DNA of 64,000 bases from Streptomyces liliiviolaceus (lineage in GTDB: Bacteria; Actinomycetota; Actinomycetes; Streptomycetales; Streptomycetaceae). The stretch covers positions 124,001 through 188,000 of the forward strand of contig NZ_JAGPYQ010000002.1 of NCBI RefSeq assembly GCF_018070025.1. The letters are read 5' to 3'. The position numbers were made by a program, and so were the translations under genes. Under the pieces are notes generated by a model. That model did not search any database and had not been told where the DNA came from. It saw nothing but the letters and a program-made list of their open reading frames with translations. Each line of letters opens with the position of its first letter. Position 1 is the stretch's first letter. Shown piece by piece: positions 56,801 through 60,737 of this stretch.

Positions 56801-57742
56801 GTGCACCCATTGCTGCGTACAAGTGAGGAAGTAGGTGACGCGCTGGCCGAGAACCGGCCCGTTGTCGCCCTGGAATCGACGGTGATCGCCCATGGGCTGC
56901 CCTATCCGGGCAACGTGGAGACCGCGCTCGCCATCGAGAAGGCGGTCCGGGAGTCGGGTGCCGTCCCGGCGACCGTCGGGCTGGACGGCGGCCGGTTCAC
57001 CGTGGGCATGTCCCCCGACGACATGGAGCGCTTCGCGGTCGGTACCGATGTGCCGAAGGTGTCCAGCCGGGACGTCGGTGTCGTCCTGGCCGGTGGCGGC
57101 CTGGGCGCCACCACGGTGGCCTCGTCGATCGTCGCCGCGGATCTCGCGGGCATCCCGTTCTTCTCCACGGCGGGCATCGGCGGAGTCCACCGTGGTGCGG
57201 GCGAGAGCTTCGACGTCTCCGCCGACCTCGTGCAGTTCACCCGGAGCAAGGTGGCCGTGGTCTGTGCCGGCGCGAAGAGCATCCTGGACCTGGGCCTGAC
57301 CCTGGAGTACCTGGAGACGCTCGGGGTGCCGGTGATCGGCTACCGCTTCGACCACTTCCCCGCCTTCTACTGCCGTTCCAGCGGTCTGCGCGTCCCCCAG
57401 CGGATCGACGACCCGGGCGACATCGCCCGCGCGGTACGGATGCACTGGGCGGCCGGGCTGCCCGGCGGCGCCCTGATCACCGCGCCCATCGACGAGGAAC
57501 ACGCCCTGGACGGCGACCTCATGGAAGGGGTCATCCAGGAGGCGCTGCGCGCCGCCGAGATCGACGGGGTGCGCGGTCCCGCCGCGACCCCGTACCTGAT
57601 GAAGGCCGTCTCGCGGGCCACGGAGGGCCGTTCCGCCGCCGCCAACCGCGAGGTCCTGATCAGTACCGCCCGGCTCGCCGGGCGCCTCGCGGTCGCGTAC
57701 GCCGCCACCGCCGAGCCGGTCGGGCAGGTGGCCGCGGCATGA
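56801..57742 (+). CDS. psuG: Pseudouridine-5'-phosphate glycosidase family protein
   Basis: 313 residues from the GTG with AGGAGA upstream. Full-length match to the PsuG/YeiN family: VVALESTVIAHGLPYPGNVETA with catalytic E25, the Mn-site region FDVSADL, and VCAGAKSILDLGLTLEYLE with the Schiff-base lysine K159 (K166 in E. coli PsuG). The enzyme makes or breaks a C-C bond between ribose 5-phosphate and a base; the reaction is reversible. In catabolic operons its partner is the kinase psuK; that is absent. Its overlap with a HAD phosphatase and an exporter fits a synthetic role, as for AlnA with AlnB in alnumycin assembly and for related genes of showdomycin and minimycin. First gene of a five-gene operon. 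Confidence 0.93.
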   Translation: MHPLLRTSEEVGDALAENRPVVALESTVIAHGLPYPGNVETALAIEKAVRESGAVPATVGLDGGRFTVGMSPDDMERFAVGTDVPKVSSRDVGVVLAGGGLGATTVASSIVAADLAGIPFFSTAGIGGVHRGAGESFDVSADLVQFTRSKVAVVCAGAKSILDLGLTLEYLETLGVPVIGYRFDHFPAFYCRSSGLRVPQRIDDPGDIARAVRMHWAAGLPGGALITAPIDEEHALDGDLMEGVIQEALRAAEIDGVRGPAATPYLMKAVSRATEGRSAAANREVLISTARLAGRLAVAYAATAEPVGQVAAA

Positions 57743-58491
57743 GCACCGCGTTCGTCTTCGACATCGACGGCACTCTCGCCGACACCCCGTCCGCCATCGC
57801 CGAGCTGATCGGTGACGTGGTGCGCGGTCTCGGCGCCGATCCCTCGTACGCGGACGTGCTGGCCACGGTCGGCAAGCCGCTGGAGGCCTCGCTCGCCGGG
57901 CTGTTGGGCACATGCGTCCACGACACCGTGACCGCCGAGGCCGCCGCCCGCTACCGCCGCCGCTTCACCACGGACGTCCTCAGCCGGGGGCCGGCGCTCC
58001 TGCTGCCGGGCGTGACCGAGGGGCTGGACCGGCTGCGGTCGGCGAGGCGCCCGCTCGGCATCGCCACCTCCAAGATCTACGCCAGTGCCCACGCGCTGCT
58101 GGACGCCACCGGCATCCTCAACCGGTTCGACACCGTCATCTGCCACAACATGGTCGAACGCGGCAAGCCCCACCCCGACATGGCGCTGCGGGCCCTCGCC
58201 GACCTGGGCGCGCAGGCCGCGCGGTCCTGGTACGTCGGCGACACCGTCACCGACATGAGGATGGCCCGTGCCGCGGAACTGCGGACCGTGGCCGTCTCCT
58301 ACGGCGTCGACACCGCCGAGGCGCTCCGGGCCGCCGGCGCCGACCACGTCGTCGCCGACTTCCCCGCGGTGATCGACATCCTCCTGGACGGAACACCGCT
58401 CGCCGCCCGTGTCACGCCCCGAGCCACCGCCCGCGTCACCCCCCGAGCCCTCACCGGGACCAGCCCGGAACCGACCGGAGCCCTGTCATGA
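57739..58491 (+). CDS. HAD-family phosphatase
   Basis: 250 residues, ATG overlapping psuG by 4 bp. HAD motifs: FVFDIDGTLADT (motif I, D-x-D), IATSK (motif II), ERGKPHPDMALRAL with the motif III lysine, and YVGDTVTDMRMA (motif IV). A helical cap sits between motifs I and II. It probably removes the 5'-phosphate from a C-ribosylated product of psuG. The last 30 residues are a Pro/Thr/Arg-rich tail of no known function. Translation is coupled to the next gene. Confidence 0.93.
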   Translation: MSTAFVFDIDGTLADTPSAIAELIGDVVRGLGADPSYADVLATVGKPLEASLAGLLGTCVHDTVTAEAAARYRRRFTTDVLSRGPALLLPGVTEGLDRLRSARRPLGIATSKIYASAHALLDATGILNRFDTVICHNMVERGKPHPDMALRALADLGAQAARSWYVGDTVTDMRMARAAELRTVAVSYGVDTAEALRAAGADHVVADFPAVIDILLDGTPLAARVTPRATARVTPRALTGTSPEPTGALS

Positions 58492-59969
58492 CCACCGCCC
58501 AGACCCCCGAGACCTCCACCGGGGCCTCCGCCCCTTCTCCCTCCCCCGCCTCCCCCACTCCCCCTCCCGCCTCGACCCGGTTCACCGGCCGTATGGTGGC
58601 CGCGCTGCTGGCCCTGTCCATCGCCCAGTTCCTGGTGGCACTCGACTACTCGATCATCTACGTGGCGCTGCCCAGCATCGGATCGGGCCTGGGACTCGCC
58701 CCGGAGCGGCTCCAGTGGGTCGTGTCGGCCTACGCCGTCTTCTTCGCCAGTTTCCTGGTGGTCGGGGGCCGGGCCGCCGACCTGACCGGGCCGCGCCGGC
58801 TCTTCCTGGGCGCGCTGGCCCTGTTCGGCCTCGGCTCGCTCGTGGCCGGACTGGCGGGTGACCAGTGGCTGCTGGTCGCCTCCCGTGCCGCTCAGGGCAT
58901 CGGCGCCGCCGCCCTCACCCCGGCCATGCTGGCCCTGATCGGTGCCGCGTTCCCGGCGGGTCCCGTCCGTTCCCGGGCGCTCGCGATCTGGGGCGCGATC
59001 GGCGCGGTGGGGCTCGCGGCCGGTGTGCTGATCGGCGGTGTGCTGACCGCGGCGCTCTCCTGGCGGTGGGTGTTCTTCGTGAACGTGCCGCTCATCGCGG
59101 TCACCGTCGTCCTCGCGCTGCGGGTCCTGCCGGCCGGCACGCGGACCAGGGCCTCGGTCCGGCATCTCAACATCCCCGGCGCCGCTCTCTTCACCGGCGC
59201 GGTGCTCTTCCTGGTGGCGGCGCTCACCCAGGCCGCGGTCGACGGCTGGGCCTCCGCGTCCTGCCTGGGCTGCCTGGCCGCGGCCGTCGCCCTGGGCACG
59301 GCCTGGTCGGCGTACGACCGGCGTCCGGCCGCCACCCCGCTCATCCCGCCGGCCCTGCTGCGGGTGCGCTCGCTGGCCGGTGCGAGCACGATGTCGGCGC
59401 TCTACATGGCGAGCGTCGGCGCCGAGTTCTTCCTGATCACCCTCTTCCTCCAGGACGTGTGGGGCTACGGTCCGCTCGGCGCCGGTATCGCCTTCCTGCC
59501 GCTGGCGCTGAGCGTGGTGGCGGGCAATCTCGTCACCGGGCAGCTCGCCGGTTCCTGGGGCATCCGCCGCACCCTCGCCACCGGATTCGCGGTCGGCGCG
59601 GCGGGCCTCGCCCTGCTCGGCCTCGGGACGGGCGGCTCCGACTACTGGACCGCCGTACTCCCGGGCCTGCTGGTCAGCGGGCTGGGCCAGGGCATGGCCT
59701 TCGCGGGGATGTACATCGCGGGCACCAAGGACGTGCCGGACAGCGAACAGGGCACCGCGTCGGCCGTCCTGACGACGACGCAGTACACGGGCGGCGCCAT
59801 GGGACTGGCCGTACTGGTCCTCGTCCTCGGTGACGAGCCCGCCGGCGGGGCGTTCGGCCGGGCGTACGCGCTGACCGCCGTCCTCGCCCTGGTGGCCGCG
59901 GCGGTGGCACTGCGGACGCTGTCGCCCCGTACGGCGGCCGTCCGGGCGGATGCCGGGGGCGAGCGGTGA
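58488..59969 (+). CDS. MFS drug/metabolite exporter, DHA2 type
   Basis: 493 residues, ATG overlapping the HAD stop by 4 bp. A Pro/Ser-rich 30-residue start precedes 14 predicted membrane helices. DHA2 marks: LDYSIIYVALPSIGSGLG (motif D1), FLVVGGRAADLTGPRRLFL (motif A) and SRAAQGIGAAALTPAMLALI (motif B), GLAAGVLIGGVLTAALSWRWVFFVNVP (motif C). It should export the operon's product and give self-resistance. Confidence 0.92.
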   Translation: MTTAQTPETSTGASAPSPSPASPTPPPASTRFTGRMVAALLALSIAQFLVALDYSIIYVALPSIGSGLGLAPERLQWVVSAYAVFFASFLVVGGRAADLTGPRRLFLGALALFGLGSLVAGLAGDQWLLVASRAAQGIGAAALTPAMLALIGAAFPAGPVRSRALAIWGAIGAVGLAAGVLIGGVLTAALSWRWVFFVNVPLIAVTVVLALRVLPAGTRTRASVRHLNIPGAALFTGAVLFLVAALTQAAVDGWASASCLGCLAAAVALGTAWSAYDRRPAATPLIPPALLRVRSLAGASTMSALYMASVGAEFFLITLFLQDVWGYGPLGAGIAFLPLALSVVAGNLVTGQLAGSWGIRRTLATGFAVGAAGLALLGLGTGGSDYWTAVLPGLLVSGLGQGMAFAGMYIAGTKDVPDSEQGTASAVLTTTQYTGGAMGLAVLVLVLGDEPAGGAFGRAYALTAVLALVAAAVALRTLSPRTAAVRADAGGER

Positions 59970-60475: not shown

Positions 60476-60485
60476 GGAGAGAAAC

Positions 60486-60737
60486 ATGCCTGTGGTGACC
60501 GTGGACTGGTGGAAGGGCAACGACCGACAGAAACGAGCCGATCTCGTGGACGAGTTGACCACGACGGTGGCCCGGATCGCGGGATGCCCGCGCGACGTCG
60601 TGACCGTGCTCGTACGCGATGTCGAGCAGGACCACTGGGGCCGTGGAGGCCTCCTCGCCGACACGCCGATCGAGGAACCGGCGGACCGTGCGCCGGTGCC
60701 CCCGGAGGCCGAACCCGCACTGTCGAGGCGCCCTTGA
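60486..60737 (+). CDS. 4-oxalocrotonate tautomerase-like protein
   Basis: 83 residues, ATG with GAGGAGAGA about 5 nt upstream. Starts MPVVTVDWWKGNDRQKRADLVDELTTTVARIAGCP: the N-terminal Pro is expected to become the catalytic base after Met removal, and the beta-alpha-beta half of the tautomerase fold follows (VVTVLVRDVEQDHWGRGG). The C-terminal 20 residues are Pro/Ala/Glu-rich. It may tautomerise or hydrolyse an intermediate of the psuG pathway. Last gene of the operon, ending at the terminator at 60754. Confidence 0.88.
   Translation: MPVVTVDWWKGNDRQKRADLVDELTTTVARIAGCPRDVVTVLVRDVEQDHWGRGGLLADTPIEEPADRAPVPPEAEPALSRRP

What the first reader, a model, noticed from the sequence alone, without database searches (positions are those of the whole stretch)
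56801..60737. psuG-HAD-MFS-cupin-tautomerase operon: candidate C-nucleoside/C-glycoside pathway
Seen: five genes in one direction with three consecutive 4-bp overlaps between genes 1-4 and a strong terminator at the end. PsuG catalytic residues E25 and K159 and HAD motifs are intact. No pseudouridine kinase (psuK) is present. Known: PsuG-family enzymes form a C-C bond between ribose 5-phosphate and an acceptor, and in alnumycin biosynthesis a PsuG homologue (AlnA) works with a HAD phosphatase (AlnB); related PsuG genes occur in showdomycin and minimycin clusters. Inference: phosphatase and exporter instead of kinase means synthesis and export of a C-riboside. Cupin and tautomerase may shape the base. 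I do not know this exact gene set in any described cluster.
Basis: partly seen in the sequence, partly recalled or inferred. Interest (0 to 1): 0.85.

Follow-up and report, generated by a model that had tools for sequence, protein, structure and literature searches.

The report
Gene cluster likely making C-linked nucleosides
A Streptomyces operon that probably joins ribose to a small ring through a carbon-carbon bond, as in some rare antibiotics, sits near a larger gene set that could make that ring by a route unlike those of the known relatives we compared.

Summary
The five-gene operon is real: PsuG, HAD, MFS, cupin and tautomerase, three 4-bp overlaps, strong hairpin at the end. Its PsuG groups with biosynthetic C-glycosynthases (AlnA, indigoidine/minimycin type, showdomycin-like) at 100/100 support, apart from pseudouridine-degrading PsuG. 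A PfkB kinase (psuK-like) lies beside PsuG in 20 of 20 sampled degradative loci and 0 of 50 biosynthetic ones. Synthesis of a C-riboside is well supported.

An AfsR regulator follows; about 10 kb on, past the window end, lies a conserved block: asparagine-synthetase-like, PrpF-like, acyl-CoA-dehydrogenase-like, dihydroorotase-like and flavin reductase genes. All 8 of 392 Streptomyces genomes with this PsuG type carry the block's cyclase: 7 within about 22 kb, one across a contig break. The block also occurs without PsuG (32 genomes), often beside CysE/CysK-like genes.

My reading: the block makes a cyclic amide or imide without an NRPS, the tautomerase sets its nucleophilic form, PsuG C-ribosylates it, HAD dephosphorylates it, MFS exports it. 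The base and its link to PsuG are inferred; two separate neighbouring pathways remain possible. Indigoidine/minimycin and showdomycin membership fail on the base genes. New variant of a known kind.

The parts
56801..57742 (+). PsuG-family C-glycosynthase (313 aa, GTG start, AGGAGA upstream); E25, D142, K159 kept
57739..58491 (+). HAD phosphatase, AlnB-like (250 aa)
   Evidence: 4-bp overlap
58488..59969 (+). MFS exporter, drug-efflux (DHA2/EmrB-like) family, below the curated cut-offs (493 aa)
   Evidence: 4-bp overlap
59966..60475 (+). single-domain cupin (169 aa); H52, H54, E59, H93 (metal ligands by the recalled cupin motif) invariant in 7 of 7 aligned
60486..60737 (+). 4-oxalocrotonate-tautomerase-family protein with Pro after the start Met (83 aa)
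60754..60793 (+). 18-bp hairpin, terminator-like, no T run
61353..64000 (+). AfsR/SARP-type regulator (BTAD, NB-ARC, TPR in its relative L008); runs past the window end to 64385; start could be 61458

Best explanation
This is the sugar-coupling and export end of a roughly 21-kb C-nucleoside gene cluster (contig C2:180801-201899; the window ends at C2:188000). Model: (1) an asparagine-synthetase-like enzyme turns a carboxylate of a small di- or tricarboxylic acid into an amide; a PrpF/4-oxalomesaconate-tautomerase-like isomerase and an acyl-CoA-dehydrogenase-like flavoprotein (with a flavin reductase) adjust double bonds or oxidation state; a dihydroorotase/hydantoinase-like enzyme closes the ring, giving a cyclic amide or imide without an NRPS. 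(2) The tautomerase presents the enol, carbon-nucleophilic form, as proposed for the tautomerase domain of MinA in minimycin synthesis. (3) PsuG joins it to ribose 5-phosphate by a C-C bond. (4) The AlnB-like HAD removes the phosphate. (5) The MFS protein exports the C-riboside, under an AfsR-type regulator. Shown: gene content, conservation, linkage, PsuG clade, no PfkB nearby. Inferred: every reaction, the ring's structure, and the roles of the cupins.
For: PsuG clade split 100/100 from degradative PsuG, with and without the E. coli row; the seven window-type rows form one group at 100/99. PfkB within 2.5 kb: 20 of 20 degradative (a sample), 0 of 50 biosynthetic; HAD 0 of 20 against 33 of 50; tautomerase within 5 kb 0 of 20 against 35 of 50. 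HAD best match AlnB. The block in the own genome. Same order from PsuG to flavin reductase in G364, G109 and G208; asnB-PrpF-ACAD-cyclase-flavin reductase a few genes from PsuG in S. griseoruber (L012), NBC_00212 (L005), G355 and G181. Block cyclase in 8 of 8 genomes with PsuG of at least 73% identity, against 32 of the other 384 (6e-9 by chance at 40/392, ignoring kinship). A tautomerase 51-62% like the window's also lies near the asnB-cyclase genes in two loci without PsuG (L166, L170). The cyclase is not the likely housekeeping one: 272.8 bits against a cut-off of 279.05, another locus has 423.4; its metal-site motifs are there by eye (sequence, motif recalled).
Against: The block cyclase occurs without this PsuG in 32 of the 40 genomes that have it, so the block serves another pathway too, and nearness in the window clade could be accident. 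There, CysE-, CysK-like and other genes lie between. Window and indigoidine-type tautomerases are only 21% identical over 52 residues. S. griseoruber's locus has no tautomerase hit, no bicupin label and only a weak cupin hit (38% over 52 residues). 17 of 50 biosynthetic-clade loci have no HAD hit nearby. The tree tool warned of long branches meeting in both trees. No substrate was shown for any enzyme.
Confidence: 0.6

Rival explanations
1. Two neighbouring but separate pathways: the five genes make a C-riboside from a base taken from elsewhere in metabolism, and the AfsR-CysE-CysK-asnB-PrpF-cyclase cluster makes its own product, for example a beta-heterocyclyl-alanine.
For: The block stands with AfsR just upstream and no PsuG label in 6 of 6 such loci read upstream (G353, G367, G072, G232, G245, G126), 6 chosen of 32. 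In the block tree PsuG linkage needs at least 4 changes, and G325 lies inside the window clade without this PsuG (G325 is in 310 contigs, 98% complete).
Against: In S. griseoruber, NBC_00212, G355 and G181 the block genes lie a few genes from PsuG, with no CysE/CysK-like gene labelled in the stretches read, so PsuG and block recur together.
Confidence: 0.2
2. The base is uracil and the product is pseudouridine itself, exported.
For: Pseudouridine monophosphate C-glycosidase can be run in the synthetic direction (title and abstract start of PMC7722734, listing).
Against: This PsuG is 46% identical to the genome's own PfkB-linked PsuG and lies in another clade; 13 positions differ consistently between the degradative rows and the window, block-linked and bpsA-clade rows. 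A tautomerase has no evident use for uracil (inference).
Confidence: 0.1
3. Breakdown or detoxification of C-nucleosides, with PsuG cleaving and HAD and MFS clearing the pieces.
For: The PsuG reaction is reversible (recalled); the MFS resembles drug-efflux families.
Against: 0 of 50 loci of this clade have a PfkB hit within 2.5 kb; the clade holds AlnA and the bpsA-linked and showdomycin-like loci.
Confidence: 0.07
4. An ordinary member of the minimycin, indigoidine or showdomycin cluster types.
For: PsuG 62-67% identical to PsuG of the bpsA clade; PsuG-HAD-MFS order also in showdomycin-like loci L085-L087 and L090.
Against: No BpsA-type NRPS with the middle (oxidase) part found in the genome (150 of 181 candidates scored); no adenylation domain, carrier domain or ectoine-synthase-like cyclase among the cluster's genes.
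Confidence: 0.03

Closest known systems
Minimycin/indigoidine clusters (minA-minB-minC; indA-indB-indC)
   Same: PsuG of the sister clade (62-67% identity), HAD in part of them, and a tautomerase hit within 5 kb in 25 of 26 rows of that clade; 8 of 24 NRPS ORFs carry it fused at the C-terminus
   Different: No BpsA-type NRPS with oxidase part found in this genome; the nearby candidate base genes are asnB-, PrpF-, ACAD- and dihydroorotase-like and flavin reductase
Showdomycin cluster (sdm)
   Same: Showdomycin-like loci (my label, from a free A domain and an ectoine-synthase-like cupin) have PsuG, HAD and an MFS 50-54% like this one
   Different: No adenylation domain, carrier domain or ectoine-synthase-like cyclase in the 21 kb
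AlnA/AlnB of alnumycin
   Same: AlnB is the best solved relative of the HAD; AlnA is the third distinct sequence for PsuG, after E. coli PsuG and its mutant
   Different: AlnA groups with L103 and other DUF6081-neighboured loci, not with this PsuG; no polyketide genes in the 21 kb
PsuG-PsuK pseudouridine degradation
   Same: Same family and catalytic residues
   Different: Other clade, no PfkB kinase nearby
D-cycloserine pathway (dcs), recalled only
   Same: CysE-like, CysK-like, PrpF-like and ATP-grasp-like genes occur together around the block
   Different: Not compared with dcs genes here; the amidotransferase and cyclase are extra

Membership tests
Biosynthetic PsuG (C-glycosynthase) | PsuG in the AlnA/IndA clade, apart from psuK-linked PsuG | tested here: met
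   100/100 split in 71 rows and in 70 rows without E. coli; long-branch warning given
Biosynthetic PsuG (C-glycosynthase) | HAD phosphatase beside it, no PfkB kinase | tested here: met
Biosynthetic PsuG (C-glycosynthase) | C-C bond formation with ribose 5-phosphate | not testable with these tools
   needs an enzyme assay
Minimycin/indigoidine cluster | BpsA/MinA-type NRPS with oxidase part | tested here: not met
   147 matches in the genome, none over query residues 486-878 of 1283 (150 of 181 candidates scored)
Minimycin cluster | DUF4243/questin-oxidase-like MinC part | tested here: inconclusive
   no match in own genome, but the 14 control genomes were silent too
Showdomycin cluster | free adenylation domain, carrier protein and ectoine-synthase-like cyclase near PsuG | tested here: not met
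   Pfam on the genes called in the 21 kb
Pseudouridine degradation | PfkB pseudouridine kinase beside PsuG | tested here: not met
D-cycloserine-like pathway (block only) | orthology of CysE-, CysK-, PrpF-like and ATP-grasp genes with dcs genes | not tested
   named from recall only

The most novel reading that the evidence does not exclude
A transferable, NRPS-free heterocycle cassette (amidotransferase, isomerase, flavoprotein, dihydroorotase-like cyclase) feeds two different coupling ends: PsuG/HAD for C-ribosides and CysE/CysK-like enzymes for alanine derivatives. The window clade carries both ends and would make a C-nucleoside and a heterocyclic amino acid from one base.
Probability: 0.35. 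Interest if true: 0.8.

Novelty: new variant of a known kind. Interest (0 to 1): 0.66.

Why it matters
Microbial C-nucleoside antibiotics are few; the review I read counts six, and the two made with PsuG-type (YeiN-like) enzymes, showdomycin and minimycin, have an NRPS-derived base (PMC8724604, passages and section 5). A cluster type with the same sugar-coupling end but a different, NRPS-free candidate base block would point to C-nucleosides not yet isolated, and lets one test directly how PsuG enzymes accept new bases. The recurrent joining and parting of PsuG and block also makes the modular origin of such compounds testable.

Tried and rejected
Rejected: pseudouridine degradation; indigoidine/minimycin member; showdomycin member. 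Considered and left: the five genes as a whole pathway, because block genes lie a few genes from PsuG in four other loci. The repeat peptide as a RiPP precursor was not pursued: it has a signal-like N-terminus (by eye) and also occurs in block-only clusters. The plasmid search gave 68 records, none covering 80% of the operon. Paper searches for this gene set: searches gave 0 papers, one search listed 3 of 4, none relevant by title; one search listed 25 of 49, titles and abstract starts only. These cover open-licence papers only, so they do not show that the set is undescribed; the original minimycin paper is not held.

Rows and labels: of 71 loci with a PsuG hit (window, 13 from L005-L017, 56 of the genome stretches, L115), 69 gave tree rows. 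L095 was dropped for a stop in its hit; L014 is absent although its hit has no stop, apparently because the script listed only loci with a called gene. The 20 degradative loci are a sample of what the survey found: 19 are the tree's rows and L095 was put there by identity and neighbours. L081 is in the bpsA clade but no bpsA gene was called in its stretch. Names such as BpsA-type and showdomycin-like are mine, partly from recall; the short ORF taken for a carrier protein in the showdomycin-like loci was not tested. Gene calls come from a simple codon-score script that truncates some starts and missed some genes (PsuG in L013 and L014, short tautomerases), which tblastn recovered. The block tree used 23 chosen loci.
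Full report
Observation. They run 56801-60737 on the + strand, with 4-bp overlaps PsuG/HAD, HAD/MFS and MFS/cupin and a 10-bp gap before the tautomerase. Pfam calls are Indigoidine_A, HAD_2, MFS_1, Cupin_2 and Tautomerase. The hairpin after the operon is strong but lacks a T run. 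The window is C2:124001-188000 of an 11.1-Mb, 4-contig genome; its nearest named relatives by PsuG are S. dioscori and S. tauricus, both 97%.

Conservation. A scan of one genome per species (136 pattern stretches, 10 confirmed loci) found the five genes in the same order in S. dioscori, S. tauricus, Streptomyces sp. M41 and S. humi; G109 and G208 of the genus survey have them too. The minus-strand ORF upstream (55098-56723) is shared with L008 and L009 but had no hit in L010 and L011, so the left edge is probably just before psuG. Among 394 genomes of the class, 5 had a PsuG match at 1e-95 or better, the own genome included; three are of another family at 65-66%, and the one of these that I read (G524) has a bpsA-type gene before PsuG.

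Which PsuG. In 392 Streptomyces genomes 327 had a PsuG at 1e-60 or better. I read the neighbourhoods of 70 loci with PsuG, from that survey, the species scan and the plasmid collection, plus the window. The tree of 71 rows (69 loci, E. coli PsuG, AlnA) splits 100/100 into 51 rows that hold AlnA, the bpsA clade, showdomycin-like loci and the window type, and 20 rows with E. coli PsuG. Because the tool flagged the E. coli row as a long branch, I rebuilt without it: the split is again 100/100, 51 against 19, in 200 of 200 bootstrap trees, the window type again one group at 100/99; the tool still warned of long branches meeting. PfkB kinases lie within 2.5 kb of PsuG in 20 of 20 degradative loci and 0 of 50 biosynthetic ones, HAD in 0 of 20 and 33 of 50, a tautomerase within 5 kb in 0 of 20 and 35 of 50. 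The tautomerase hit is present in 25 of 26 rows of the bpsA clade, 7 of 7 window-type and 3 of 4 other block-linked loci, and in none of the remaining 13. In 8 of 24 bpsA-type NRPS ORFs it is fused at the C-terminus, in line with the tautomerase domain that the review describes for MinA (PMC8724604, passages). This suggests, but does not show, that the window type also works on a base that must be held as an enol: the window tautomerase and that of pSA3239 are only 21% identical over 52 residues.

No NRPS for the base found. The bpsA-type protein of pSA3239 matched 147 places in the own genome; the matches cover its start to residue 485 or its end from 879, none the oxidase part between (150 of 181 candidates scored). 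So the base is probably not made as in indigoidine or minimycin.

The block beyond the window. After the tautomerase come an AfsR/SARP-type regulator (61353-64385), then on the minus strand a peptide with 13-residue GDEGPN-type repeats (C2:188508-189044) and an ATP-grasp-like protein with an LAL_C2 end (C2:189286-190299), then on the plus strand CysE-like, CysK-like, second cupin, EamA, bicupin, asnB-like, PrpF-like, ACAD-like, dihydroorotase-like and flavin reductase genes, ending at C2:201899. The labelled order is the same in G364, G109 and G208. In G084 the PsuG contig and the block contig both end inside the repeat gene, so the break looks like an assembly gap. In NBC_00212, G355 and G181 the order is PsuG-HAD-MFS-glyoxalase-cupin-acyltransferase-bicupin-asnB-PrpF-ACAD-cyclase-flavin reductase; in S. 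griseoruber asnB-PrpF-ACAD-cyclase-flavin reductase come first, then two minus-strand genes (one ATP-grasp-like), then PsuG-HAD, with no bicupin labelled. No CysE/CysK-like gene was labelled in these four. The cyclase is distinct from the likely housekeeping dihydroorotase; its best solved relative is an L-hydantoinase.

How the block moves. The cyclase is in 40 of 392 Streptomyces genomes at 1e-80. All 8 genomes with PsuG of at least 73% identity have it, 7 in one stretch and G084 across the contig break. The other 32 lack such a PsuG. In 6 of 6 of those read upstream, an AfsR gene is there without a PsuG label. Tautomerase genes 51-62% like the window's also lie near the block core in L166 and L170, which lack PsuG. 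A tree of asnB, PrpF and cyclase from 23 chosen loci needs at least 4 changes of PsuG linkage, and G325 lies inside the window clade without it. Gain and loss cannot be told apart here.

Mechanism and limits. From the families, an amidotransferase plus a dihydroorotase/hydantoinase-like enzyme is what one would expect for closing a cyclic amide or imide, and the isomerase and flavoprotein could set the unsaturation. PsuG, HAD and MFS then couple, dephosphorylate and export. These steps are inference. The cupins are unassigned; the operon's cupin keeps H52, H54, E59 and H93 in 7 of 7 aligned. Against the model: the block clearly also serves pathways without PsuG, and in the window clade CysE/CysK-like genes sit between, so a second product, or two unconnected pathways, is possible. 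My odds: biosynthetic C-riboside operon about 0.85; base from the block, given that, about 0.7.

Noticed in passing
L114:508-1044 (-), C2:188508-189044, just past the window end: Peptide with a signal-like N-terminus and ten DEGPN motifs in 13-residue repeats beside an ATP-grasp-like gene; divergent GEGPN-repeat versions in block-only loci L182-L184. Purpose unknown; a search for the two motifs in papers gave 3 unrelated papers.
   Followed up: partly
G000:C1:3828813-3829715 (L110): The genome's second PsuG, 46% identical, of the degradative clade with a PfkB hit nearby.
   Followed up: yes
window 7292-11191: NRPS ORF matching A-domain and T-TE parts of the bpsA-type query, not its oxidase part.
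   Followed up: no
window 36748-37134: Gene 56% identical to the glyoxalase-family gene inside the NBC_00212 PsuG cluster, about 20 kb from the operon here.
   Followed up: no
L088, L089, L093, L094, L103: AlnA-clade PsuG with HAD beside DUF6081-type genes and, as tested in L088, lipocalin-like and PNPOx-like genes.
   Followed up: no
L007 (pSA3239, plasmid of the auricin producer): bpsA-type gene, PsuG and tautomerase lie near malonyltransferase, acyl-CoA carboxylase and deoxysugar genes.
   Followed up: no
L069 (G064): Biosynthetic-clade PsuG on a long branch, no HAD hit within 2.5 kb and neighbours unlike the others.
   Followed up: no
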